From JBHIBR01 sp046759145 [NCBI: Nitrospinota bacterium] (GTDB lineage: Bacteria > UBA8248): a stretch of 10,543 nt of DNA. The notes under the pieces are model-generated. The model had not been told where the DNA came from. It worked only from the letters and a program-made list of their open reading frames with translations, and did no database searches. The stretch is taken from NCBI GenBank assembly GCA_046759145.1, contig JBHIBR010000032.1, positions 1 through 10,543 on the forward strand. Direction: 5' to 3'. Shown in pieces: positions 1-10,543 of this stretch; position 1 is the first letter of the stretch, and each line of letters begins with the position of its first letter. The position numbers were made by a program, and so were the translations under genes.

Positions 1-19
1 ACCGGCAGCATGAGGAGGG

Positions 20-132
20 TGTCATTCTGAACGAAGTGAAGAATCTCGCTGCAGGCCCACTACGAGATGCTTCGCCATGCGGATTGCACACAATCCGCAC
101 GGATTGCCTGCAATCCGCAGCTCAGCATGACA
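20..132. repeat. Palindromic intergenic repeat element (MITE/REP-like)
   Basis: The ends TGTCATTCTGA (20-30) and TCAGCATGACA (122-132) are inverted copies with one mismatch in 11. Inside, GAAGAATCTCG (38-48) pairs with CGAGATGCTTC (63-73), again 10 of 11, giving a long imperfect hairpin. Between the inner and right arms lie two small hairpins made from one octamer: GCGGATTG/CAATCCGC (79-86/91-98, loop of 4) and CGGATTG/CAATCCG (100-106/111-117, loop of 4). The sequence type (TGTCATTCTGA followed by GAAGAATCTC) is one I know as a dispersed non-coding repeat in many environmental bacterial genomes. No protein is encoded. It may be transcribed as a structured leader of the gene at 213 or act as a terminator for an upstream gene outside the window. 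Confidence 0.7.
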
Positions 133-212
133 GGCAAGGGGTTTTGGGATAGGCTCTAAGTCGGGGCGGCAGGCCAACCCATCGGCCGATAACACGGGAG
201 GATCACTGCGCA

Positions 213-794
213 ATGAAAGTGGGACTCGTGGGGGCGGGCGCCATCGCCCACACGCACATCGAGGCCTACATCCGCCATCCCGCGGTCAAGGCTGTGATCG
301 CTGCGGACAAGAGGAAGGAAGCGCGCGAGGCGCTGGCCGGCAAGTACGGCATCATCAAGGGCACCGCGCCCCACTACGAGGAGCTGCTGGCCGACGAGGA
401 CATCGCCCTGATTGACGTCTGCACGCCGCACCACACCCACCACCCCATCACCATGGCCGCCCTGGCCGCCGGCAAGGACGTGATCTGCGAGAAGCCCCTA
501 GCCCTAACGCTGGACGAGACCGACGAGATGATCGCCGCCGCCGAGGAGCACGAGCGCAGGCTCTTCTGCTCGCTCAACCAGCGCATGCTGCCGGCGCACC
601 TGAAGGCCAAGGAGCTCATCGAGGACGGCGACATCGGCCACCCCTTCTTCGGCGTGGTGGTGGTAGTGGGCAACGAGTTCGAGCGCATGAACGATCCCGA
701 GAGCTGGAAGGGGGAGTGGAAGCAGGCCGGCGGAGGAGCGCTGTTCGACACCGGCTACCACGCCATCTACATGCTCCAGCACTTCCTGGGTGAG
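213..794 (+). pseudogene. Gfo/Idh/MocA oxidoreductase, 3' half lost
   Basis: NAD(P)-dependent oxidoreductases of this family act on sugars, inositols and related compounds. The N-terminal Rossmann fold is intact: the glycine motif GAGAIAHTH at residues 7-15, an acidic residue after beta2, and the family signature EKPLAL at 93-98 holding the catalytic-site lysine K94. The start of the second domain is visible up to GGGALFDTGYHAIYMLQHFLGE (about 173-194), which includes the conserved D179/H183-type motif. After about residue 194 (base ~794) the reading continues open to 1985 but bears no family resemblance, because it is the antisense of the DinB gene and then of the hydrolase gene. Family members usually have 330-390 residues, so roughly half is missing. 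The ATG at 213 has GGGAGGA at 196-202. It is therefore a broken gene or an assembly join. The translated 590-residue chimera is unlikely to be functional. Confidence 0.85.
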
Positions 795-1145
795 GGCAAA
801 GGAATCCTGAAGAGCTTCCAGGATGGAGGAGAAGGTGGGGTAGCGCTTCGGGTCGAGCTGGCGGTCCGCCTCCCCCGTGTCGTAGAGGGCCTCGGGATTT
901 TGGCGCAGGGGATGGCCCGCCGCGGAAAGCGTTTTCCCCCACCGGTCAAGGAGCCAGCGGTAGTTCACCGAGGCCACGTGGCTCACCTGGCTCCGGATGC
1001 TCCAGAGCCCCCAGCTCTTTTCGGGCAGGGTGAAGTCGAGCTGAGCGTCGGCGAGCCCCTCCACCTCCCGGGCGAACTTCTCGTAGAGACCCGCAAACCC
1101 GGGGAAGAGCTCGCGGGCGGGACGCTCGGCAGCGGGCTGTGGCAT
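785..1145 (-). pseudogene. DinB-family protein, C-terminal part lost
   Basis: The DinB fold is a four-helix bundle with a metal site of three histidines, used by thiol-dependent S-transferases and by many proteins of unknown role. From ATG 1145 (GGAGGAGGA about 7 nt upstream) the product shows a typical N-terminal half: LYEKF..EVEGLADAQLDF (residues 20-38), SWGLWSIRSQVSHVASVNYRWLL (44-66) with the first ligand histidine H56, and a second helix region RYPTFSSILEALQDSFALTQ (101-120). Past about residue 120 the frame stays open but is the antisense of the oxidoreductase at 213 and has no DinB character, so the helices carrying the last ligand are gone. Intact family members have about 150-180 residues. 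It lies 30 nt downstream of the hydrolase gene on the same strand and was probably co-transcribed with it. The family call rests on the pattern of the first half only. Confidence 0.7.
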
Positions 1146-1175
1146 CGCAATCTCCTCCTCCGGGCCCGCAGGCCC

Positions 1176-2030
1176 TCACTTGGTCAGGATGTAGCTCTTT
1201 CCGATCTCCGGATTCAACACCCGCAGGGGCAATCCCAGCTTCCGGACCTCCGCCTCGAACTGCTCAGGCGTGCCCATCCATTTCTGGCGGCCCTTCAAGC
1301 GGGTGTGCTGAGGGATCACCGTTTTGAGGTTCGGGTTGTCCGTCATGAGGAGCTTGGCCGCGAAGGCCGCGTCGTCGGGGTGCATCATGAACCGCCCCAG
1401 GACTGGCAGCATCGCCACGTGGGGCTTGTAGCGCATCCCGAAGAGCTGAAGGTCCAGGGTGAGCGCGGTGCTGCCCGCCATGTACACGCGCAGCCCGTTT
1501 TCGAACGTGATGAGGAAGCCGGCGGCCGGGCCCCCGTAGAGGGGCGCGGGCGTCCCCTTGGGCCCCCGGATTCCCGAGCCGTGGTGGGACTGGACGACCT
1601 GGACCGTGACGCCCCCCACGGTCGTGCGCCCGCTCAGGCTCATCCGGTAGATCTGGCTCCTCTTGCCGCCGTATTTGCCGATCTGCCCCTGCATCCAGCT
1701 CCCCAGCTCGGCCACGGCGATGACCTTTGCGCCGGTGCGCGCGGCGATCTCCACCGCATCACCCATGTCATCCCTGTGTCCGGCCGTCGCCAGGATCAGG
1801 TCCACCTCGCCCCTCTTGTAGAAATCGATCTTGATGGGCGCATCTCGGTTGCCTTTGATCCACGGGTTGATGAGCACCACCTTGCCGGCCGTCGAGGTGA
1901 ACCGGAAGTGCTGGTTCCCAAAAAATTCCATCCGGACCTCGGCCGCCCGCGCGGTCGGCGTCAGGAGGAGGCCGCACAGAAGTAGAAGCACGAAGAGGAG
2001 AGCGCTACGGGCACACCGGCGAGCGAGCAT
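1176..2030 (-). CDS. Secreted UlaG-like MBL-fold protein with altered metal site
   Basis: The 284-residue product has an N-terminal signal peptide: basic MLARRCAR, a leucine-rich core at about 9-23, and an Ala-X-Ala site near 28-30, so it should be exported. The rest follows the UlaG-like/UPF0173 metallo-beta-lactamase layout: a beta-strand start, LINPW (53-57), a loop where HxHxDH is expected, GDAVEIAARTGAKVIAVAEL (90-109), GFLITFENGLRVYMAGST (171-188), LPVLGRFMMHPDDAA (208-222) and a late VIPQH (238-242). The metal loop reads TAGHRDD (82-88), so two of its usual ligands are replaced (His to Ala, His to Asp). The bridging Asp of the GDT motif is Ser187, while H85, D87, H149/H150 and H242 remain. 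Classical hydrolase activity is therefore doubtful. I start at ATG 2030 because GGAGGA (2038-2043) sits 7 nt before it and the signal peptide begins there. An upstream ATG at 2051 has no good site. It is the first gene of a minus-strand pair with the broken dinB. Confidence 0.8.
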   Translation of the reverse strand: MLARRCARSALLFVLLLLCGLLLTPTARAAEVRMEFFGNQHFRFTSTAGKVVLINPWIKGNRDAPIKIDFYKRGEVDLILATAGHRDDMGDAVEIAARTGAKVIAVAELGSWMQGQIGKYGGKRSQIYRMSLSGRTTVGGVTVQVVQSHHGSGIRGPKGTPAPLYGGPAAGFLITFENGLRVYMAGSTALTLDLQLFGMRYKPHVAMLPVLGRFMMHPDDAAFAAKLLMTDNPNLKTVIPQHTRLKGRQKWMGTPEQFEAEVRKLGLPLRVLNPEIGKSYILTK

Positions 2031-2051
2031 ATCTTGGTCCTCCGAAGTCAT

Positions 2052-2331
2052 GGCAAAAGATGCCTCTCAGCTCAAAAAGCCCTTGCGACGATCTGACGCT
2101 CCCAAATGGGCGAAGGGCTCACGGGAAGGACCGCCAGGAACGCCGTAAGCAAGAGCGCCTTCGCCCGTCGCATGCGTCGAATCTCCCGCACGGGGGATGG
2201 CCCACTATACCAGAAGCTGCCGAGCGGCGCGAAGACCACAAGGGGGCCGCACGGCCGGGCGAGCTCGCTGGACAGGCCCGCCGGGCGGGTGTTAGATGGC
2301 CCCTTGGGCAGAACCGAGAGGCGAGGGCCGC
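2052..2331. other. Divergent intergenic region, hydrolase / tyrS
   Basis: This 280-base stretch separates the minus-strand hydrolase from tyrS and must hold promoters for both. I see open frames across it but none with family resemblance. A TATACC hexamer at 2206-2211 could be a -10 element for tyrS, but I find no convincing -35 partner. I see no T-box specifier structure that I can support by eye, although tyrosyl-tRNA synthetase genes of some phyla carry one. Confidence 0.4.
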
Positions 2332-3579
2332 ATGGGCGAGCTCGAAAGGCAACTGGCCCACATCACCCGGGGCACGGTGGAGGTCATCCAGCGGGAGGAG
2401 CTGGTCGCCAAGCTCCGCCGCCGAAAGCCCCTTCGGGTCAAGTGCGGCTTCGACCCCACCGCCCCCGACCTCCACCTCGGCCACACGGTCCTCATGCACA
2501 AGCTCCGCCACTTCCAGGAGCTGGGCCACGAGGTCATCTTCCTCATCGGGGACTTCACCGGCCTCATCGGCGACCCCACCGGCCAGAGCGAGACGCGCCC
2601 GCCCCTCAAGCGGGAGGAGCTCGAGCGAAACGCCGAGACCTACCGCCGCCAGGCCTTCAAGATCCTCGACGAGAAGAAGACCCGGATGGAGTTCAACAGC
2701 CGCTGGCTCTCCTCCCTCTCGGGAGAGGACCTCGTCCGCCTCGCCTCCCGGATGACGGTCGCCCGGATGCTCGAGCGGGACGATTTCCAGAAACGCTACG
2801 GAGAGGGCCAGCCCATCAGCCTGCATGAGTTCCTCTACCCGCTGCTCCAGGGCTACGACTCGGTGGCCCTCGAGGCGGATGTGGAGCTCGGGGGTACGGA
2901 CCAGAAGTTCAACCTCCTCGTGGGGCGCGAGCTGCAGCGGGACTGGGGGCAGGAGCCCCAGGTGGTCATCACCCTGCCCCTGCTGCCGGGCACGGACGGG
3001 GTGCTCAAGATGAGCAAGTCGTTCGGGAACCACATCGGCATCGACGAGCCCCCCGAGGAGATCTACGGAAAGGTCATGTCCATCGGCGACGAGCTCATGC
3101 TCCACTACTACGAGCTCCTGAGCGAGGCGCCCGCGGAGGAGCTGGAGGAGATGCGCCGGGCGATGGCCGCCGGTCGCATGAATCCCCGAGACGCGAAGGC
3201 CCGCCTCGCCCTGGAGCTCACCCGCCGCTACTGGGGGAGCGCAGCCGCGGAGGCGGCTGCCCTCCGCTTCAACCAGGTGCACCGGGAACGACAGGTGCCC
3301 GATGAGGTCTCCGAGCCCGCCCTCGAGGTGCGCACCCGCACGGCGGGCCGCGTGTGGCTGGCGGCGCTCCTGGTGGCGGCGGGCCTCGCCAAGAGCCACG
3401 CCGAGGCCCGGCGCCTCATCCGCGGGGGCGGAGTCCGGGTGGACGGGGAGAGGGTGAAAGACGAGGAGCTCGAGCTTCGGGCCGACCGCGAGCACCTCCT
3501 CCAGGTGGGCAAGCGGCGCTTTGTCCGCATCAAGCCCGAGAAGCTCACCTTGCTTCCGGCCGCAGAGTCCCAGCCCTAA
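2332..3579 (+). CDS. tyrS: Tyrosyl-tRNA synthetase
   Basis: This enzyme charges tRNA-Tyr with tyrosine in the cytoplasm. The 415-residue protein has a class I Rossmann catalytic core with the HIGH-type motif HLGH at 48-51 inside [13 protein letters not shown], the tyrosine-pocket region with [14 protein letters not shown] (71-84), [22 protein letters not shown] (173-194) and the KMSKS loop at 226-230 followed by FGNHI. The C-terminal S4 RNA-binding domain spans about 337-400 ([16 protein letters not shown] then VRVDGERV). Length and the HLGH and GGTDQKFN features match the TyrZ-like bacterial subgroup. The start at 2332 is preferred over an upstream ATG at 2296 because GAGAGG (2316-2321) and GAGGG (2323-2327) precede it and homologues begin with this short helix. 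It is the one clear housekeeping gene in the window and appears complete. Confidence 0.97.
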
Positions 3580-3606
3580 CGCCAGGAACCAGGCAAAGAG
3601 CTACCC

Positions 3607-3638
3607 CCCCCGCCCCGGCGGGAGAGAACGGGCGGGGG
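3607..3638 (+). terminator. GC-rich hairpin after tyrS
   Basis: CCCCCGCCC (3607-3615) pairs perfectly with GGGCGGGGG (3630-3638) around a 14-base loop, 27 nt after the tyrS stop. There is no T-run behind it, so it would be at best a non-canonical or Rho-assisted terminator or an mRNA 3'-end stabiliser. Chance pairing is possible in such GC-rich sequence. Confidence 0.3.
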
Positions 3639-3660
3639 CCTCAGCGGGGGAGGGCGCGCG

Positions 3661-3843
3661 TTGGAGTGGCTGACGCTCACAGCCCCCGCCCCCGAGGCGC
3701 GGGCGGTCCCGGGTGCATTCCTCCTCTCCCTGGCGCAGGTCCCGCTGCGGGCGGCCCCGCGGGAGGTCACCACCCTCCGAACGGTGGCGGCGGCCATCAT
3801 CGTGGCGGGGGGGGCCGCCCCGGTGACGGGGAGGCGGGGTTAG
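3661..3843 (+). pseudogene. Probable C-terminal remnant of a DMT (EamA) permease
   Basis: A 60-residue frame opens with TTG behind GGGGGAGGG (3644-3652) and ends in TAG. Its end, EVTTLRTVAAAIIVAGGAAPVTGRRG, has the look of the last transmembrane helix and tail of EamA-type transporters. It aligns without gaps to the last part of the intact permease next door (ERVTWPVVGGTVAIVAGALLI), sharing V-T and the IVAG core. The preceding segment AVPGAFLLSLAQVPL would correspond to helix 9 but is interrupted by charged and proline residues unusual for a helix. It looks like the 3' stub of a second, decayed copy. The stop overlaps the next gene's GTG by one base (TAGTG). It could instead be a real small leader or partner protein. 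I see no way to decide from sequence alone. Confidence 0.45.
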
Positions 3844-4724
3844 TGGGCTGGCTCCTGCGCTCGCCCGAGGCCTTGGCCCTGGGGTGCGCCTTCTTCTTCG
3901 CCCTGGGCCTGCTGATCGTGCGCGCCGCCCTCCCCTTCTCCACACCCCTGACCAGCAACTTCATGGTGACGTTCATGAACCTGCTGCTAGCCTGGTCGGG
4001 CGTGGCCCTCTGGAGCGGCCTCCCGGCCCAGTGGTCTTGGGCCGGAGCGTTCTGGTTCGCGATGGTGGGGATCGCAGGGCAGGGGCTCGCCCGCTCGCTC
4101 AACTACATCGGGATCGGCCTCTCGGGCGCGGCGCGCTCGAACACCATCGCCTCCATCTCCCCCCTCTTCAGCGCCCTCTTGGCCGTCCTCCTCTTGCACG
4201 AGCGGCCGGGCCTCGCAGTCATCGGGGGGACCTTCGCCATCGTGGCCGGGGTGATCCTGCTGAGCCGCGAACGCACCCCCGGCGGGGGGCCTATGACCTG
4301 GCGCCACCTGGCCGTTCCCCTCCTGGCGGCGAGCTTGTTCAGCGTCACCCCCATCTTCCGGAAGTTGGGCCTGGGGCACATGGACGCCCCCCTGCTGGCC
4401 CTCGCCGTCGCATCCACTTTCGGCACGCCGATGCTCCTCCTCACCTCCCATCTGGGGATGGGCGGGCGCATCCACCTCCACCACAGGGCCGTGGCGTGGG
4501 GGGCGCTTGCGGGCGCGCTCAATTTCACCGCGGGCCTGGCCTTCTGGGTCGCACTGAGCCTGGGTGAGGTCACGGTGGTGGTCCCCCTCACCCGGGCGGG
4601 GCCGCTCCTCGTGGTTCTACTTGGCCACCTCTTCCTCCGGGAGCTCGAGCGGGTCACCTGGCCCGTCGTGGGGGGCACCGTCGCCATCGTGGCGGGGGCC
4701 CTCCTCATCACCGCCCTCGGCTGA
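3843..4724 (+). CDS. DMT superfamily (EamA) permease
   Basis: This 293-residue inner-membrane protein belongs to the drug/metabolite transporter superfamily. The substrate cannot be read from the sequence; metabolite efflux or uptake is typical. It shows the EamA double-repeat plan of about ten helices: repeat one about residues 11-141 with AARSNTIASISPLFSALLAVLLLHERPG (96-123), repeat two about 155-293 with GEVTVVVPLTRAGPLLVVLLGHLFLRELERVT (241-272). Each ends in the same short helix (IGGTFAIVAGVILL, VGGTVAIVAGALLI), which is the internal duplication. The GTG start at 3843 is chosen because GGGGAGG (3828-3834) lies 8 nt upstream and the usual family length results. The open frame extends back into tyrS but that part is shadow. 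A one-base overlap with the preceding fragment suggests translational coupling. It converges on the anion permease gene. Confidence 0.88.
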   Translation: MGWLLRSPEALALGCAFFFALGLLIVRAALPFSTPLTSNFMVTFMNLLLAWSGVALWSGLPAQWSWAGAFWFAMVGIAGQGLARSLNYIGIGLSGAARSNTIASISPLFSALLAVLLLHERPGLAVIGGTFAIVAGVILLSRERTPGGGPMTWRHLAVPLLAASLFSVTPIFRKLGLGHMDAPLLALAVASTFGTPMLLLTSHLGMGGRIHLHHRAVAWGALAGALNFTAGLAFWVALSLGEVTVVVPLTRAGPLLVVLLGHLFLRELERVTWPVVGGTVAIVAGALLITALG

Positions 4725-4735
4725 GCTCGGCTCGA

Positions 4736-4754
4736 CTGAGCTCGCCGAAGTCAG
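4736..4754. terminator. Short inverted repeat between convergent permease genes
   Basis: CTGAGCTC (4736-4743) pairs with GAAGTCAG (4747-4754) with one mismatch and a 3-base loop. It sits 12 nt after the DMT stop and covers the stop codon of the opposite gene. A direct copy of CTGAGCTCG is at 4721-4729. No T-run follows on either strand, so terminator function is only possible. Confidence 0.3.
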
Positions 4755-6160
4755 GGCGCAAGCCCCCGCCCCAGGAACCCCCACCACGGCAGGATGGCCA
4801 GGGGGAGCAGGGCCAGCAAAAGCGCCAGCATGGCGAGGCCCAAGCGGATCACCTCTCCCGCCCGGTAGTAACCCGCCTCGTAGGCCAGGATGCTCGTTGC
4901 GGTCTGCACCGGGTAGAGGATGACGGCATCCGTCGCCAGGGTCACCAGGAGCCCGCAGGCAAACGGGTTCAGCCCCGCCGCCCGGCCCAGGGAACTTGCG
5001 ATGGGGATGAAGAGAGACAAAAAAGCCGCCAGGTTCGCCACCCCCAGGTGGAGGAAGGCCGCGGTCGCCACCAGGGCCCCAGCCCACAGTGCGGGCGAGG
5101 CCCCCCCCTCGGGCAGGAGCGGAAGGAGCCTCCCCGCGAGCCAGCCGGCCGCCCCGCTCCCCTCAAGGGCCCGGGCGAGGGAGAGGGCTGCGCCCAGCAC
5201 GATCACCGTGGACCAGGAGAACTCGCGCTCAAACTCCCTCCACTCGAAGGCGCCCACCCTGGGCAGGGAGAGCACCAAGAGGGCCAGGAGGGCGGGAAGG
5301 GCGGGGCTCAGGCCGTGGACGAAGTCAAGCGCCCAGAGGACCGAGGCCCCCCCGATGACCGCGAGCACGCCGCGCTCCGAGGGCCGCAAGGGCCCGGGGG
5401 GCTCCTCCGCCTCCGGCGAGAGGGGGCCGGAGGGCGACGAGGCTCCCCCCGGGTAGAGGAGAAAAAGGAGGGTCCCACCCCCCGCGAGCAGGAGGTAGTA
5501 GGGGAGGCTCATGGCGAAGAACCACTCCCACCAGCCCACCCCGCCGAGCAGGGTGGCCGCCGTGAAGGAGACCGTTCCCCCTGTCAAGAGCGCCGAGGAG
5601 GCCAGCGGGTTCAGGATGCCCAGGGCCAGCATGATGGCCCGCGCGGGCCGGTCTCCCGGCCCCCAGCCCAGCCTCCGGAAGAGGCGGAGATAGACGGGGA
5701 TGAGGATGGCATTGCGCGTGATGGCGGAGGGGAGCAGCAGCGCCATGGGGGGCAAAGAGAGGAGGAGCTGGGGCAGGAGCCGCCTCCCCTCTCCTCCCGC
5801 GCGCCGCAGGAGGAAGCGGGCAAGCCGGTCGGCGAGGCCCGTCTTCACAGCGGCGAAGCCCATGGCAGAAGAACCCACCAGGAAGAACACCACAGGTGAG
5901 CTGAACCCGTAGAAGACCCCCGCCACCGACCGGACCCCGCCGGAGAGGCCCAGCAGGGCGAGGACCGCCAACCCACTGACCGCGACGGGGACCACCTCCC
6001 CCACCCAGAGCACGACGGCGGCGGCCGCCACCGCGAGCACCCCCTGGCCGGCGGGCGGGAGGCCCGGCAGGGCGGGCCCCAGGCGGAGGAGAAGAAACAG
6101 GATTAGAGCAAAGGCCCCGAAAAGACCCTTCCCGAAAAAGCCCTTCTCCCCATCCGCCAC
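4751..6160 (-). CDS. DASS/SLC13-type anion:sodium symporter
   Basis: This 469-residue inner-membrane protein resembles the divalent anion:Na+ symporter family, which imports dicarboxylates, citrate or sulfate. The sequence does not tell which. It has many long hydrophobic helices from about residue 11 to 465, a cytoplasmic-looking hydrophilic segment at 236-262, the first half signature around LLLPSAITRNAILIPVYLRLF (141-161) and the second-half hairpin ILYPVQTATSILAYEAGYYRAGEVIRLG (414-441), equivalent to the P-x-x-T-x-x-x-A-x-x-x-x-G-Y motif in which family members bind Na+ and substrate. The SNT-type motif of the first half is modified (SAITRN). I start at GTG 6160 because GGGGGAGG (6167-6174) lies 6 nt before it and the first helix follows directly. 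A longer frame to 6391 would overlap the divergent cupin gene and adds a non-homologous arginine-rich segment. It is monocistronic by context. Confidence 0.85.
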   Translation of the reverse strand: MADGEKGFFGKGLFGAFALILFLLLRLGPALPGLPPAGQGVLAVAAAAVVLWVGEVVPVAVSGLAVLALLGLSGGVRSVAGVFYGFSSPVVFFLVGSSAMGFAAVKTGLADRLARFLLRRAGGEGRRLLPQLLLSLPPMALLLPSAITRNAILIPVYLRLFRRLGWGPGDRPARAIMLALGILNPLASSALLTGGTVSFTAATLLGGVGWWEWFFAMSLPYYLLLAGGGTLLFLLYPGGASSPSGPLSPEAEEPPGPLRPSERGVLAVIGGASVLWALDFVHGLSPALPALLALLVLSLPRVGAFEWREFEREFSWSTVIVLGAALSLARALEGSGAAGWLAGRLLPLLPEGGASPALWAGALVATAAFLHLGVANLAAFLSLFIPIASSLGRAAGLNPFACGLLVTLATDAVILYPVQTATSILAYEAGYYRAGEVIRLGLAMLALLLALLPLAILPWWGFLGRGLAP

Positions 6161-6326
6161 CGAGAGCCTCCCCCTGAGACGTGGCCCCTCTCCGCGGGAA
6201 ACCCCCCTCCCTACCACCCGGGCGCCGCGGTCGTCAACGGAGCCACCTTGCGGCCCCCGGGCGAGCTCCCTAAAATAGGGAAGGGTACCGGCGTGAAGCG
6301 AGCGCGTACATGGGGAGAAAAAGGGG

Positions 6327-6647
6327 ATGGCGTTTTTCAAAAAGGCCCAAGAGAACCTGCGCTTCTCGCCCGAGAAGATGCAGAAGAGCAACCCCTTCGA
6401 GACCGAACGCCTCTTCTGCGACGTCTACTGCCTGGAGCCGGGCCAGAGCCAGAAGGCCCACGCCCACGCGGGCTCGGACAAGATTTACTGCGTGCTGGAG
6501 GGCCGGGCCCGGGTGCGGGTGAGCGACGAGGAGCGGACGCTTGGCCCCGGCGAGATCGCCCTCGCCCGCGAGGGCTTGGAGCACGGGGTGCGGAACGACG
6601 GACCCGGGCGGGCTTCGCTGCTCGTCCTGATGGCACCCAAACCTTGA
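6327..6647 (+). CDS. Small single-domain cupin protein
   Basis: The 106-residue protein is a single beta-barrel cupin. Motif 1 is GQSQKAHAHAGSDKIYCVLEGRARV (39-63) with metal-ligand candidates H45 and H47. The usual glutamate is replaced by D51 or K52. Motif 2 is GEIALAREGLEHGVRND (75-91), with H86 as third histidine and arginine where proline is usual. Such small cupins bind a metal and act as enzymes or sensors on small molecules. No substrate can be named. ATG 6327 has GGGGAG (6312-6317) 9 nt upstream. It is divergent from the anion permease across about 166 bases, so the two may share a control region, and it is followed 71 nt later by the response regulators. Both cysteines (C31, C35) lie before the barrel motif. 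Confidence 0.85.
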   Translation: MAFFKKAQENLRFSPEKMQKSNPFETERLFCDVYCLEPGQSQKAHAHAGSDKIYCVLEGRARVRVSDEERTLGPGEIALAREGLEHGVRNDGPGRASLLVLMAPKP

Positions 6648-6718
6648 GCCCACGCCATTCCTAGCGATGGGGAAGTGCGGGCAAGCGTGGTCGAGCCCAT
6701 CCCTTTAAGGAGGCCCTC

Positions 6719-7120
6719 ATGAGCGTCACCCAGCCCTTTTCGGGCGGCCCGCGGGCGCGGATCCTCGTGGCCGACGACGAACCCGACGTGTGCGCCCTGC
6801 TCGAGGAGTTCCTGAAGGCCAGGGGCTACGAAGTGACCCTCGCCTACGACGGGGAAGAGGCTCTGGCGAAGGTGCGTGAGCAGCCACCGGACCTCCTCCT
6901 CTTAGACATGAGGATGCCCAAGAGGGACGGGGTGGGCGTGATGAAGGAGCTCCGGACAATTGCTCCCGACCTCCCGGTGGTCCTCGTGACCGGAATCGGG
7001 GACATGGAGCTCACCCGGGAGGCCCTCCGCCTGGGCGCCACGGGCTACGTGCCGAAGCCGATCAACTTCGACTATTTGGAGATGTCCATCGGGCTCAACA
7101 TCCCCGGCAAGTCGGGGTGA
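6719..7120 (+). CDS. Stand-alone receiver-domain response regulator
   Basis: This 133-residue protein is a CheY-like receiver with no output domain: acidic pocket D19-D20, phospho-acceptor D63 in LLLLDMRMPKRDG, switch threonine T91 in VLVTGIGD, Y110 and K113 in GYVPKP. All five active-site positions are intact, so it should be phosphorylated by a histidine kinase, which is not in the window. AAGGAGG (6707-6713) lies 5 nt before the ATG. It is a tandem duplicate of the next gene, identical at 105 of 133 aligned residues. The two frames are in phase, separated by this gene's TGA (7118-7120) and nine further sense codons. After the stop, D-A-A-R is still encoded, matching E-A-A-R in the neighbour, which suggests the ancestral reading ran further. 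Confidence 0.93.
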   Translation: MSVTQPFSGGPRARILVADDEPDVCALLEEFLKARGYEVTLAYDGEEALAKVREQPPDLLLLDMRMPKRDGVGVMKELRTIAPDLPVVLVTGIGDMELTREALRLGATGYVPKPINFDYLEMSIGLNIPGKSG

Positions 7121-7147
7121 GACGCTGCCCGCCGCAAGGAGACCCTC

Positions 7148-7900
7148 ATGAGCGTCACCCGGCCCTCTTCGGGCGGCCCGCCAGCGCGGATCCTCGTGGC
7201 CGACGACGACCTGCACTTTTGCAACCTGCTCAAGCATTTCCTGAAGGCGAAGGGCTACGAAGTGACCTTCGCCTACGACGGGGAAGAGGCCCTGGCGAAG
7301 GTGCGCGAGCAGCCACCGCACCTCCTCCTCCTGGACATCAAGATGCCCAAGAGGGACGGGGTGGGCGTGATGAAGGAGCTCCAGACAATTGCTCCCGACC
7401 TCCCGGTGGTCCTCGTGACCGGAATCGGGGACGTGGACCTCACCCGGGAGGCCCTCCGCCTGGGCGCCACGGGCTACGTGTCGAAGCCCATCGACCTCAA
7501 CCACCTGGGGATGTCAATCGCGCTCAACATCACCGGCAAACCGGAACGGGAGGCCGCCCGACCCTCCAGGCCCTCTCCCGCCGCCCCCACGCTCTACTCC
7601 CTTCGTATGCACCACGTGGCGCCGGGCAAGATGGAAGAGTTCCACCGACTGCGCCGGGAGGCGATCCCCTTCTACGAGAAGCACGGGATGAAGGTAGTGG
7701 CCTACTGGAAGACCGAAGTCGGCCCCTCTCCTTGTGTGGTCTCCCTCACCGCCTTCCAAGACTGGGCTCACTACGAGAAGGTACAGGGGGCGCTGGTCTC
7801 CGACCCCGAGTTCAGAAAACTCATGGGCCGCTTCCAGGAGCTGAGCCTCAAGACCGAGACCATCATCCTTCGCCCCACGGACTACTCGCCCATGCGGTGA
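7148..7900 (+). CDS. Response regulator: receiver domain fused to NIPSNAP domain
   Basis: The 250-residue protein has two parts. Residues 13-128 are a receiver domain with D19-D20, phospho-acceptor D63 (LLLLDIKMPKRDG), T91, Y110 and K113. A proline/arginine-rich linker runs about 132-147. Residues 148-246 match the NIPSNAP fold (ferredoxin-like, alpha/beta-barrel type dimers): LYSLRMHHVAPGKMEEFHRL (149-168), FYEKHGMKVVAYWKTEVGP (175-193), then the SDPEFRKLM (218-226) and the ending ETIILRPTDYSP that is characteristic of that family. NIPSNAP is not a usual output domain. It has no DNA-binding or catalytic motif that I can name, so the output may be protein interaction or small-molecule binding. 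AAGGAG (7136-7141) is 6 nt before the ATG. The gene lies 27 nt after its receiver-only paralogue and is probably translated from the same mRNA. It appears complete. Confidence 0.9.
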   Translation: MSVTRPSSGGPPARILVADDDLHFCNLLKHFLKAKGYEVTFAYDGEEALAKVREQPPHLLLLDIKMPKRDGVGVMKELQTIAPDLPVVLVTGIGDVDLTREALRLGATGYVSKPIDLNHLGMSIALNITGKPEREAARPSRPSPAAPTLYSLRMHHVAPGKMEEFHRLRREAIPFYEKHGMKVVAYWKTEVGPSPCVVSLTAFQDWAHYEKVQGALVSDPEFRKLMGRFQELSLKTETIILRPTDYSPMR

Positions 7901-7931
7901 AGGAGGGCTGCGCCGCTGACCCCCTAGGGCC

Positions 7932-7992
7932 TCCATCCGAGATGGAAGGGACGGGGAGAATGGGAGGGTTCGTTGGGTCCATCCCGGGATGG
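7932..7992. promoter_or_regulatory. Two related palindromes upstream of a small ORF
   Basis: TCCATC/GATGGA (7932-7937/7941-7946, loop of 3) and a perfect 14-base palindrome CCATCCCGGGATGG (7979-7992) share the half-site CCATC/GATGG and stand about 47 bases apart centre to centre. The second ends at the ribosome binding site of the gene at 8004. They could be operator half-sites, RNA hairpins closing RR2 transcription, or chance. No protein partner is evident. Confidence 0.35.
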
Positions 7993-8003
7993 GGGGAGTC
8001 GCC

Positions 8004-8228
8004 ATGGGCCGCTTCTACATCTTCGAGCGCAGGGTTCCCATCCTCACCCCAGAGCAGCTCGCCCGCCTCTCCTCCCTGGGCGCGCAGGTGAGCGGCGGCT
8101 CGGGCAAGGTGCACATCCACATCTTCCTTCCCGAGGAGGCGGGGGAGAAGGTCATCGACTACCTCGAGAGCGAGGGTTTCCGACTCATGAGCGAGGAGGA
8201 GCACGGCCCAAGAGCACTCAACGAGTGA
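8004..8228 (+). CDS. Small protein of unknown function
   Basis: This 74-residue soluble protein has no family I recognise. It begins with a hydrophobic strand (GRFYIFERRVPIL), then a predicted helix (TPEQLARLSSL, 15-25), a glycine/serine loop, a strand with alternating histidines (KVHIHIFL, 35-42) and an acidic helix (PEEAGEKVIDYLESEGF, 43-59). This beta-alpha-beta-alpha order suits a small ferredoxin-like or ACT-like fold. There is no signal peptide, membrane helix or cysteine. I start at ATG 8004 because GGGGGGAG (7991-7998) lies 5 nt before it. An in-frame ATG at 7989 falls inside a palindrome and has no site. Codon use is as GC-rich as its neighbours, which supports real coding. Confidence 0.7.
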   Translation: MGRFYIFERRVPILTPEQLARLSSLGAQVSGGSGKVHIHIFLPEEAGEKVIDYLESEGFRLMSEEEHGPRALNE

Positions 8229-8296
8229 CCCTCGGGGAGGGGGGGAGGCGATCCATTTCCCCTTCGCCGAAGCCCGCTGCGCCGCGGACGAGGCGC

Positions 8297-8392
8297 TTAG
8301 AGCCCCCCCAGCTCCTTCCACGTCCGCCGCATCCCGTCCCGCACCCACCGGGTTGCGTCAAGCGGTTTGACCTCTGCGGCGCCCCTCGGCAC
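8297..8392 (-). pseudogene. Possible 3' stub of a lost minus-strand gene
   Basis: In the 215-base gap between the small protein and the amidase, the minus strand encodes a peptide ending ATRWVRDGMRRTWKELGGL before TAA, with almost every third base G or C in the last 20 codons. It reads like the C-terminal helix of a real protein, but I cannot name the family, and the frame is closed by a TGA at 8405-8407. A remnant or chance are both possible. Confidence 0.2.
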
Positions 8393-8443
8393 AATGACGC
8401 CACTTCAGGGGTCTGGCTCTGCCCTCCGCGAGGAGACCCTCCC

Positions 8444-9382
8444 ATGGCCAAGCACCACCAGCTCATCGCCGGGCCCGAGACCGTCCACTGGGGCTACTAC
8501 GACGCCAGACTGAAACCCGTCCTCACGGTGGACTCGGGCGATACGGTGACCGTCCACACCCTCTCGGGCGGGCCTGGCGACGTGCACCCCGACCGCAAGC
8601 GCGTCCCGCCCGATCTCCTCGCCATCCACCAAAAGTGCCGCCACGGGGCGGGCGCCCACATCATGACGGGGCCCATCGCCCTGCGCGGGGCGAAGCCGGG
8701 CCAAGCCCTCGAGCTGCGCATCCTGGACATCCAGTTCCGCTTCGACTGGGGCTACAACCGCTTCATGCCCCTCAAGGGGACCCTGCCGGAGGATTTCCCG
8801 AAATTCCACCGCGTCTTCGTCGAGATCGACCGGGAGAAGAGACTGGCCGACTGGGGGGCGGGGGTGAAAATTCCCCTGCGACCCTTTTTCGGGAACATCG
8901 GGGTGGCCCCCCCGCCCAACATGGGCGAGATCCCCTCCAACCCCCCCACCGAGCACGGGGGGAACATGGACAACAAGGAGCTGGTGCCCGGGGCGACGCT
9001 CTACCTCCCCATCTGGAACGAGGGGGCCCTCCTCTCCATCGGCGACGGCCACGGCGTCCAGGGGGACGGCGAGGTGGACCAGACGGCGCTCGAGACGGGG
9101 TTGGTGGGCACCTTCGAGGTCCGCCTCCGGGAGGACCTCACGCTCAAGCTCCCCCGGGCGGAGACCCCTACCTGCTATATGACCATGGGATTCGACGCCG
9201 ACCTGGACGACGCCGCGAAGACGGCGCTCCGGGAGATGATCGACTTCCTCTCTTCCGCCAAGGGGCTGAGCCGGGAGGACGCTTATGTGCTCTCGAGCCT
9301 CGCGGTGGACCTCCACATCACGCAGCTCGTGAACGGCAACAAGGGCGTCCACGCCACCATCGCCAAGAGCATCGTGGACTGA
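8444..9382 (+). CDS. Acetamidase/formamidase family protein
   Basis: Members hydrolyse short amides such as formamide or acetamide to ammonia and the acid in the cytoplasm. The 312-residue protein carries the family landmarks in order: TVDSGDTVTVHTLSGGPGDVH (28-48), GPIALRGAKPGQALELRILDI (76-96), RPFFGNIGVAP (146-156), HGGNMDNKELVPGATLYLPIWNEGALLSIGDGHGVQGDGEVDQTALET (171-218), and ITQLVNGNKGVHATIAKSI (292-310). Length matches the AmdA/FmdA short form and both ends look complete. The GDPHAAQGDGE block of most members appears as GDGHGVQGDGE, so substrate preference may differ. AGGAG (8431-8435) lies 8 nt before the ATG. The frame extends far upstream, but that part is unrelated. No amide transporter (fmdC/urea-type) is adjacent, so the physiological substrate is open. 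Confidence 0.93.
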   Translation: MAKHHQLIAGPETVHWGYYDARLKPVLTVDSGDTVTVHTLSGGPGDVHPDRKRVPPDLLAIHQKCRHGAGAHIMTGPIALRGAKPGQALELRILDIQFRFDWGYNRFMPLKGTLPEDFPKFHRVFVEIDREKRLADWGAGVKIPLRPFFGNIGVAPPPNMGEIPSNPPTEHGGNMDNKELVPGATLYLPIWNEGALLSIGDGHGVQGDGEVDQTALETGLVGTFEVRLREDLTLKLPRAETPTCYMTMGFDADLDDAAKTALREMIDFLSSAKGLSREDAYVLSSLAVDLHITQLVNGNKGVHATIAKSIVD

Positions 9383-9445
9383 GGGGGGGAATGGAACGAG
9401 GCGTCCTGGAGACCCCTCATTGCAAAGAGGGCTGCTGAATCGGCG

Positions 9446-9649
9446 CTAGCCCTTCCCCGCGGCGTCCAGCGTGAATAGGTTTCGGACGGGAAACCGCTTG
9501 CTGGCGCCGAGGATCTCGATCCCGACGATCTTCCCGTCCTCGGTCAGGTGAAGGACGACCCCTTTTTCCAGTTCCACGCCCGCACGCGGCCTTTTCGAGG
9601 AAAGACCGATGTAGGCGGCGTCCACCTCCCGGTCATAGCGGACTTTCAT
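9446..9649 (-). CDS. DUF2283 family small protein
   Basis: The 67-residue protein follows the DUF2283 pattern: MKVRYDREVDAAYIGLS (1-17), a short turn, GVVLHLTEDGKIVGIEILGASKRFP (29-53). The compact beta-sheet fold has no known activity. Some family members lie beside toxin-like DUF4258 genes, but none is present here. ATG 9649 is preferred over an in-frame TTG at 9664 because the family usually starts with MKxxYD and GGAGAG lies 7 nt upstream. It is the last gene of the minus-strand run, 64 nt after a distant relative. Confidence 0.85.
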   Translation of the reverse strand: MKVRYDREVDAAYIGLSSKRPRAGVELEKGVVLHLTEDGKIVGIEILGASKRFPVRNLFTLDAAGKG

Positions 9650-9713
9650 CTTCCCTCTCTCCAAATGGCTCGCCGAAATGGATAGGCGGTGATAAAAACG
9701 GGGTACTCTATTA

Positions 9714-9983
9714 TCAGGCCGCCCGCAACGGCTTGAGCTCCCATTCCTCCAGGGGCGAGAGCTTGAGCCTTCGAAGCACTCGATTGATGGCCTCCAGGGC
9801 GAGGCGCTCCGGGGCTCTGATCTCGACGCCGATGGGCTCCCCGCCCTCCGCGTAGTCGATCAGCAGGCCGTGTGTCGCCCGCTCGGTGCGCGCGCTCTTC
9901 TGGCCCGGCCCCCGTGGGAGGTAGAGATAGGCGGCGATGGGCCACCCCTTGCGGAAAGTCACTTCGAGGTATCGTTCCTTCAT
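9714..9983 (-). CDS. DUF2283-like small protein
   Basis: This 89-residue protein begins MKERYLEVTFRKGWPIAAYLYLPR and continues with GLLIDYAEGGEPIGVEIRAPERLALEAINRVLRRL. The order (strand with AAYLYL, basic turn, strand with D-Y-x-x-G-G-x-P-I-G-V-E-I) matches the DUF2283 neighbour at 9446, with an extra C-terminal helix. No catalytic motif is visible. The start is uncertain: ATG 9983 fits homologues I recall, but GTG 10007, nine nt after the previous stop and behind GGGGAG, would add MSGDVPRT. Its place 33 nt after the selenoprotein frame suggests one mRNA. The role is unknown. Confidence 0.75.
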   Translation of the reverse strand: MKERYLEVTFRKGWPIAAYLYLPRGPGQKSARTERATHGLLIDYAEGGEPIGVEIRAPERLALEAINRVLRRLKLSPLEEWELKPLRAA

Positions 9984-10016
9984 GGTCCTCGGGACATCGC
10001 CGCTCACGCGGCTCCC

Positions 10017-10526
10017 CTACTCCTCCTCCTCGCGCAGGCTGAGGATCACGTCCGCCGCGATCTTGGCGGCGTGGTAGCACACGCTCGGGCACCCCGTGGC
10101 GCCGTGACCCCCAGCCTCCAGGAACGCCTTGCGCTGCTCTGGGTCAGCGAGCAGGAAGCTTCGCCCGTAGAGGATTTTTTGAATCTCGGGGCAGAGGCTC
10201 GCCCCCACCGCTTCCCGGAAGCGGCGGTAGACCTCCTGCGCGGGTACCATCGCCTTCCCGTACTGAGCCGTGTCCTCTATCCGCTCCCTTCCCACGACCA
10301 GGCCCACCGCCATGATGGCGCCCGTGAGGGCGCCGCACGTCTCCCCCATCTGGGCCACGCCGCCGGCGAGCGCGCTCCCCGCCCGAAACGCGCCCTCACC
10401 CTCCAGGTCGAGCTTTTCTTGCAAAGCTGCAAGAACGGCCTGCGTTCACCCGCCATACTTCATGTCGTATTCGCGCGCACGCTCCCCGACGGCTTCGATG
10501 AGCTTCTCCCTCTCGATGGCGTCCAC
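10017..10526 (-). CDS. C_GCAxxG_C_C family redox protein, probable selenoprotein (UGA at codon 27)
   Basis: This family contains small proteins with four to five conserved cysteines and presumed thiol redox function. Read through TGA 10446-10448, the frame gives 169 residues from GTG 10526 (GGAGGAG 3 nt upstream): REKLIEAVGERAREYDMKYGG (6-26), U27, TQAVLAALQEKL (28-39), then the CGAxxG motif at C64 (GETCGALTG), C112 in GASLC, and C146/C150 in GCPSVC near the end. U27 stands exactly where the family has its first cysteine (K-Y-G-G-C-x-Q-A-V-L). The homologous sequence continues without a frame change on both sides, so a plain stop would remove a conserved N-terminus. A hairpin with SECIS spacing follows (separate entry). 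Family annotations include selenocysteine forms, as I recall. The alternative is a nonsense mutation with restart at TTG 10424. Its partner may be a reductase or transporter outside the window. Confidence 0.85.
10416..10435 (-). promoter_or_regulatory. Candidate bacterial SECIS hairpin
   Basis: On the coding (minus) strand, TTCTTGCA (10435-10428) pairs perfectly with TGCAAGAA (10423-10416) around the 4-base loop GCTT (10427-10424). The loop begins after 18 nt from UGA and its first base is G. Bacterial SECIS elements need a stem-loop in this distance range with G at the start of the apical loop. The upper part GCA-(G...)-TGC equals that of the E. coli fdhF element as I recall it (GCA-GGUC-UGC). 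There is no bulged U as in fdhF. It also encodes V-L-A-A-L-Q-E-K. Confidence 0.75.
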
Positions 10527-10543
10527 GGGCTCCTCCTCTCTGC

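What the first reader, a model, noticed from the sequence alone, without database searches (positions are those of the whole stretch)
10416..10526. In-frame UGA at the first cysteine of a C_GCAxxG_C_C protein with a SECIS hairpin: a selenoprotein that standard calling truncates
The minus-strand frame from GTG 10526 is open to 10017 except for one TGA at 10446-10448. Family similarity runs on both sides of it (…EYDMKYGG before, QAVLAALQEKL after), and the TGA occupies the family's first conserved cysteine. An exact 8-bp hairpin with loop GCUU begins 10 nt after UGA, with the loop starting after 18 nt and opening with G, the known bacterial SECIS requirements. Strong ribosome binding site and GTG start lie just inside the window edge. 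Together these make selenocysteine insertion much more likely than a nonsense mutation. It predicts selenium-dependent redox chemistry at Sec27 paired with one of C64, C112, C146 or C150.
Basis: partly seen in the sequence, partly recalled or inferred. Interest (0 to 1): 0.85.

Follow-up and report, generated by a model that had tools for sequence, protein, structure and literature searches.

The report
UGA-encoded selenocysteine redox protein gene
A bacterial gene that looks broken by a stop codon is very probably intact, because the stop codon is read as the selenium amino acid selenocysteine; this is a new example, in a little-studied lineage, of a protein family already known to include selenium versions.

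Summary
The minus-strand frame GTG 10526 to TAG 10017 is open except for TGA 10446-10448, followed by an 8-bp GCUU hairpin at 10416-10435. The read-through protein passes both family cut-offs. Three of 18 genomes of the Candidatus Tectomicrobia phylum hold 70-77% identical orthologues, all with TGA at this codon. Over 49 family rows the column is Cys in 36, TGA in 11, other in 2; SECIS-like hairpins at -5 kcal/mol or better follow 11 of 11 TGA but 3 of 36 Cys codons. Most of the phylum has selA, selB, selD and tRNA-Sec. TGA ends 8 of 11 window genes checked, so the code is unchanged. I conclude: a real selenoprotein gene with Sec27 at the family's first conserved cysteine. It is a new member of a known kind: NCBI names the family '(seleno)protein' and two reviews list it. 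A confident model matches split-Soret cytochrome c, whose entry title reports a 'novel iron centre', so Sec27 might be a metal ligand. Limits: the window's own genome is not held, the Sec machinery is incomplete in the orthologue-bearing assemblies, and the hairpin alone is weak evidence.

The parts
10017..10526 (-). selenoprotein gene: C-GCAxxG-C-C family (PF09719/TIGR01909), 169 residues with Sec27, GTG start, TAG stop
   Evidence: open frame with one TGA; PF09719 82.4 bits (cut-off 27), TIGR01909 64.5 bits (cut-off 47.4); orthologues with the same TGA
10446..10448 (-). UGA codon 27, read as selenocysteine
   Evidence: same codon TGA in G001, G003, G014; Cys in 36 of 49 family rows, TGA in 11
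10416..10435 (-). SECIS-like hairpin, 8-bp stem, loop GCUU (10424-10427), 18 nt from UGA to loop, -8.3 kcal/mol
   Evidence: stem kept in four genomes, with the closing A-U changed to G-U in G001
10532..10537 (-). Shine-Dalgarno AGGAGG, 5 nt before GTG
   Evidence: read by eye
10335..10337 (-). Cys64, conserved, in the CGAxxG motif
   Evidence: invariant
10191..10193 (-). Cys112, conserved
   Evidence: invariant
10089..10091 (-). Cys146, conserved
   Evidence: invariant; it is Cys in 8 of the 9 loci whose match covers it, a gap in L117

Best explanation
The gene encodes a small all-helical selenoprotein of the C-GCAxxG-C-C family, from a bacterium of, or close to, the Candidatus Tectomicrobia phylum. 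SelB carrying Sec-tRNA(Sec) binds the hairpin that begins 10 nt after the UGA and inserts selenocysteine at codon 27, where most relatives have cysteine. Sec27 then forms the family's conserved site with Cys64, Cys112 and Cys146. Shown here: the open frame, family membership, conservation of the TGA in four genomes, the Cys/TGA pairing, the hairpins, and Sec machinery in most of the phylum. Inferred: that SelB really decodes this UGA, that the window's own cell has the machinery, and what chemistry the site performs (redox work, perhaps with bound iron).
For: Read-through protein over the family cut-offs. 3 of 18 phylum genomes have the orthologue, all 3 with TGA at this codon (alignment). Column 27: Cys 36, TGA 11, Ser 1, Ala 1 of 49 rows; Cys in 11 of 11 loci, of which 5 are genes not. 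Hairpin of the published SECIS model: at -5 kcal/mol or better 11 of 11 TGA rows v 3 of 36 Cys rows; at -6.5, 8 v 3; at -7.5, 7 v 1. dN is below dS downstream of the TGA in 6 of 6 pairs, and upstream in 4 of the 5 pairs with an estimable dS. Over cut-off in the phylum: selA 14, selB 14, selD 14, tRNA-Sec 16 of 18, and each of those 14 selD genes carries one in-frame TGA; ARAGORN calls tRNA-Sec(TCA) in G003. selB is over cut-off in 6 of the 8 genomes in which one search shows a TGA-form row. TGA ends 8 of 11 window genes. 6 of 20,000 synonymous recodings reach the hairpin's stability.
Against: The window's genome is not held. G001 shows no selA, selB or tRNA-Sec over cut-off, though it has a TGA-containing selD; its contigs seen here are 3.5-5.3 kb long, so absence is weak evidence. 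G014 has a selB cut by its contig end (207.8 bits, cut-off 242.25), tRNA-Sec just below cut-off (44.8 v 47) and neither selA nor selD over cut-off; G003 has no selD over cut-off. selB is also over cut-off in 21 of the other 41 family-bearing genomes, so the association is modest. The hairpin is not rare by itself (32 of 248 TGAs), its folding z-score is -0.64, Rfam gives no SECIS match, and synonymous conservation in the hairpin is not significantly raised (5 of 7 v 43 of 88 codons, P 0.23). Upstream, G001/G003 has dN above dS (0.125 v 0.040, 24 codons). The four related hairpins, and the G042/G189 pairs, are not independent rows in the Fisher tests.
Confidence: 0.95

Rival explanations
1. A nonsense mutation or sequencing error: the TGA is a real stop and the gene is a pseudogene, or the base is wrong.
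For: The window's own Sec machinery could not be examined; one orthologue-bearing genome, G001, shows no selB.
Against: The same TGA in three other genomes that differ at many other bases; dN below dS downstream of the TGA in 6 of 6 pairs; no other in-frame stop.
Confidence: 0.02
2. The gene starts after the TGA (for example TTG 10424, 135 residues), and the upstream stretch is not coding.
For: An ORF from TTG 10424 exists, and the G014 locus has a similar TTG-started ORF.
Against: A strong ribosome site precedes GTG 10526 and the G001 ATG (by eye); 12 of the 24 codons before the TGA encode the same residue in all four genomes, and dN is below dS there in 4 of 5 estimable pairs; a start at 10424 would lose the family's first conserved cysteine and sits inside the hairpin.
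Confidence: 0.02
3. UGA is read as an ordinary amino acid, Trp or Cys, by an altered code or special tRNA.
For: TGA is in frame and the homologous residue is Cys.
Against: TGA is the stop of 8 of 11 window genes checked; relatives have Cys, not Trp; bacterial Sec machinery is present in most of the phylum.
Confidence: 0.01

Closest known systems
C-GCAxxG-C-C family (seleno)protein, TIGR01909 / PF09719
   Same: Passes both curated cut-offs; four conserved Cys/Sec positions; the family is already named '(seleno)protein' in NCBIfam and listed among selenoproteins in tables of two reviews (PMC9312934, passage; PMC13188914, passages).
   Different: Longer sub-type with an extra LYGRxFLLADPEQ...EAGGH stretch, a form of which is also in L084 and L094; an added C150 (4 of 32 rows; 2 of 9 loci covering it). 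Its nearest tree neighbours have Cys, which suggests its own Cys/Sec switch. I did not check at which cysteine the published examples carry Sec.
Bacterial SECIS consensus (bSECISearch model)
   Same: Loop 3-9 nt, stem 4-16 bp, G in the first two loop positions, 16-37 nt from UGA, energy at or below -7.5 kcal/mol (model from PMC13188914 legend; window values).
   Different: Second loop base is C, not the usual G or U.
Split-Soret cytochrome c (PDB 1h21)
   Same: Best structural match: Z 14.5, rmsd 3.2, 143 of 169 residues aligned; weak profile match E 0.0013.
   Different: No CxxCH haem motif; 17.1 bits against a cut-off of 400 for the NCBIfam model; 18% identity.

Membership tests
C-GCAxxG-C-C family (PF09719, TIGR01909) | score over the curated cut-off | tested here: met
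   82.4 v 27 bits; 64.5 v 47.4 bits
C-GCAxxG-C-C family (PF09719, TIGR01909) | conserved Cys at four positions | tested here: met
   C64, C112, C146 present, invariant in 32 of 32 rows and in A3; position 27 is TGA here, Cys or TGA in 47 of 49 rows
Bacterial selenoprotein gene | in-frame UGA aligned with Cys of homologues, TGA also in other organisms | tested here: met
Bacterial selenoprotein gene | SECIS hairpin directly after the UGA | tested here: met
   fits the published model; not rare on its own in this GC-rich DNA
Bacterial selenoprotein gene | selA, selB, selC, selD in the same genome | tested here: inconclusive
   window genome not held; of the orthologue-bearing genomes none has all four over cut-off (G003 lacks selD, G001 has selD only, G014 none); 14-16 of 18 phylum genomes over cut-off per component
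Bacterial selenoprotein gene | Sec found in the protein | not testable with these tools
   needs mass spectrometry or selenium labelling
Split-Soret cytochrome c | score over the NF047622 cut-off and a CxxCH haem site | tested here: not met
   17.1 v 400 bits; no CxxCH in the translation
Split-Soret cytochrome c | same fold | tested here: met
   model pLDDT 96.9; VIA-align Z 14.5 to 1h21, next row 4.5; but Foldseek had no match at E <= 0.001, and the tool notes that helical models can reach Z 14

The most novel reading that the evidence does not exclude
Sec27 is not a partner in a selenyl-sulfide but a ligand, with Cys64, Cys112 and Cys146, of an iron or iron-sulfur centre in a split-Soret-like helical fold: a naturally selenocysteine-ligated iron centre in a small stand-alone protein. 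Support is indirect: the fold match to 1h21, whose title reports a novel iron centre, and the placement of all four conserved residues at or next to the start of a predicted helix (27, 65, 112, 146). Which residues bind iron in 1h21 was not read in any call.
Probability: 0.25. Interest if true: 0.65.

Novelty: new member of a known kind. Interest (0 to 1): 0.33.

Why it matters
Ordinary ORF finding loses the first 34 codons of this gene: the mechanical list gives only a 135-residue frame from TTG 10424. The case adds the Candidatus Tectomicrobia phylum to the places where C-GCAxxG-C-C selenoproteins occur, and the tree forces at least three Sec/Cys changes at this cysteine in the family. The fold match gives a testable idea about a family still called 'putative redox-active': that its conserved thiols, and here a selenol, hold an iron centre.

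Tried and rejected
Rfam on 10300-10543 at E up to 10: one chance match, no SECIS. Folding 50 nt against shuffles: not unusual. Plasmid tblastn: 6 distant records, none covering 80%. Viral contigs: no relative. Window tyrosyl-tRNA synthetase to place the contig: 0 of the 18 phylum genomes at E <= 1e-50, best full-length match 60% elsewhere, so this gene does not support the placement; DNA of window 1-9400 does match 17 of 18 phylum genomes, amidase gene up to 73%. Gene neighbourhood: with L001, L063 and L064 the window shares only the selenoprotein gene, one distant EamA match and a 31-base stretch, so context gives no function. PDB by sequence with one protein: nothing meaningful. Foldseek in PDB: no match at E <= 0.001. 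Synonymous conservation inside the hairpin: not significant. Papers: a search for selenocysteine with Tectomicrobia gave 2 papers (listing only), one for Entotheonella with selenoprotein gave none; this is not proof that it is unreported. A search for a Sec-ligated cluster phrase gave none.

Rows dropped: one search used 48 of the 67 PF09719 matches plus the window; the 19 left out all scored 47.7 bits or less (some rows kept score lower). Two duplicate loci (L090, L091) were left out. The tree used 47 of the 49 rows, without the Ser and Ala rows. One search looked at 11 of the 20 matches, six of them genes already. Three energy thresholds were tried, all reported.

Full report
Observation. 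The minus strand from GTG 10526 to TAG 10017 is one frame with a single TGA at 10446-10448. A Shine-Dalgarno sequence precedes GTG (by eye). Ten bases after the TGA comes an exact 8-bp stem with loop GCUU (10416-10435), 18 nt from TGA to loop.

Family. The protein read through the TGA scores 82.4 bits against PF09719 (cut-off 27) and 64.5 against TIGR01909 (cut-off 47.4), which NCBI names 'C-GCAxxG-C-C family (seleno)protein'. No relative was found in viral contigs and only distant ones on plasmids.

The TGA is conserved. One scan of genome contigs gave a 77% identical orthologue in a Candidatus Tectomicrobia assembly, with TGA at the same codon. In its phylum 3 of 18 genomes have the gene, all 3 with this TGA; the extra TAA reported in G014 is its natural end. 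dN is below dS downstream of the TGA in 6 of 6 pairs. Upstream (24 codons) it is below in 4 pairs, above in G001/G003 (0.125 v 0.040), and dS could not be computed for window/G014.

Cys/Sec column. I aligned the window with 48 of the 67 PF09719 matches found in 290 genomes, 49 of which have the family. The column is Cys in 36, TGA in 11, Ser in 1, Ala in 1. The last two rows (L106, L108) look split-Soret-like, are gapped here and have a Cys four residues earlier (by eye). In a tblastn of eleven loci from a search of 386 genomes that overlaps the earlier sets, all 11 have Cys at 27; five are genes not. C64, C112 and C146 were invariant in the first 32 rows and C150 was present in 4; one locus, L117, has a gap at 146, and 2 of the 9 loci that cover position 150 have Cys there.

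Hairpin. With the published bacterial SECIS limits (PMC13188914, passages), hairpins at -5 kcal/mol or better follow 11 of 11 TGA codons and 3 of 36 Cys codons; at -6.5, 8 of 11 and 3 of 36; at -7.5, the published limit, 7 of 11 and 1 of 36 (Fisher 2e-8, 7e-5, 4e-5; related rows make these values too small). My script counts unbroken stems only. Against this, 32 of 248 TGA trinucleotides in the window are followed by an equally stable hairpin, the shuffled-fold z-score is -0.64, and codon conservation in the hairpin is not significant (5 of 7 v 43 of 88, P 0.23). Keeping the protein fixed, 6 of 20,000 synonymous recodings reach the observed stability.

Machinery. The window's genome is not held. 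In the phylum, over cut-off: selA 14, selB 14, selD 14 and tRNA-Sec 16 of 18. Those 14 selD genes each carry one in-frame TGA. Of the orthologue-bearing genomes, G003 has selA and selB on one contig and tRNA-Sec(TCA) but no selD over cut-off; G001 has selD only; G014 has a contig-cut selB below cut-off, tRNA-Sec just below cut-off, and neither selA nor selD over cut-off. selB is over cut-off in 6 of the 8 genomes with a TGA-form row and 21 of the other 41 family-bearing genomes. TGA ends 8 of the 11 window genes checked, so it is an ordinary stop there.

Origin of the window. DNA 1-9400 matches 17 of 18 phylum genomes, with the acetamidase gene at up to 73% and short near-identical stretches. 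The tyrosyl-tRNA synthetase does not match them. I take the window to be from this phylum or near it; this is not proven.

Tree. With the TGA residues masked, the window and the three orthologues form one group (100/97) inside a group of 7 with three Cys rows (96/87). The Sec/Cys label needs 6 changes over 47 rows, and well-supported branches force at least 3; the bootstrap had not settled.

Structure. AlphaFold2 on 40 aligned rows, with position 27 as Cys, gave pLDDT 96.9. Predicted helices begin at 27, 65, 112 and 146. Foldseek found nothing at E <= 0.001, but VIA-align gave split-Soret cytochrome c 1h21 at Z 14.5, 3.2 A, 143 residues, next row 4.5. The tool notes that helical models can reach 14 without a clear relative, but the gap below this row and a profile match at E 0.0013 (best single stretch 0.052) support kinship. 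The entry title, also in a reference list (PMC5701242, passages), speaks of a novel iron centre; its ligands were not read in any call.

Known or new. A table in PMC9312934 (passage) and a table in PMC13188914 (passages) list C-GCAxxG-C-C proteins as selenoproteins. This is therefore a new member of a known kind. PMC4103992 (passages) reports a PF09719 protein of unknown function induced during growth on acetone. Passages only were seen of PMC12013277, PMC1088965, PMC8840924 and PMC4429474.

Verdict. Selenocysteine insertion at codon 27 is very likely. The chemistry of the site is open; the boldest reading is a selenocysteine-ligated iron centre.

Noticed in passing
window 20-46 and 4728-4759: Short stretches 94-100% identical to several places in phylum genomes (20-46 in G017 and G011; 4728-4759 in G002, G003 and G001), looking like dispersed repeats.
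   Followed up: no
L051-L062 and further selD matches: All 14 selD genes over cut-off in the phylum carry one in-frame TGA, so SelD is itself probably a selenoprotein there; the position of the TGA was not examined.
   Followed up: no
L102, L104: In G189 and G042 a TGA-form C-GCAxxG-C-C domain is followed by a second, Cys-form domain, 69 and 75 bases after the first match.
   Followed up: partly
window 2296-3579: Tyrosyl-tRNA synthetase has no match at E <= 1e-50 in any of the 18 phylum genomes, best full-length match 60% elsewhere, unlike the amidase gene of the same window.
   Followed up: partly
family alignment, window 10335-10337: The central motif starts CGA in 27 of 32 rows (counted by eye) rather than GCA as the family name suggests.
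   Followed up: no
window 9446-9664 and 9714-10007: Two DUF2283-type small genes follow the selenoprotein gene; the one at 9714-10007 scores 21.9, just under the cut-off of 23. No match to them in L001, L063 or L064.
   Followed up: partly
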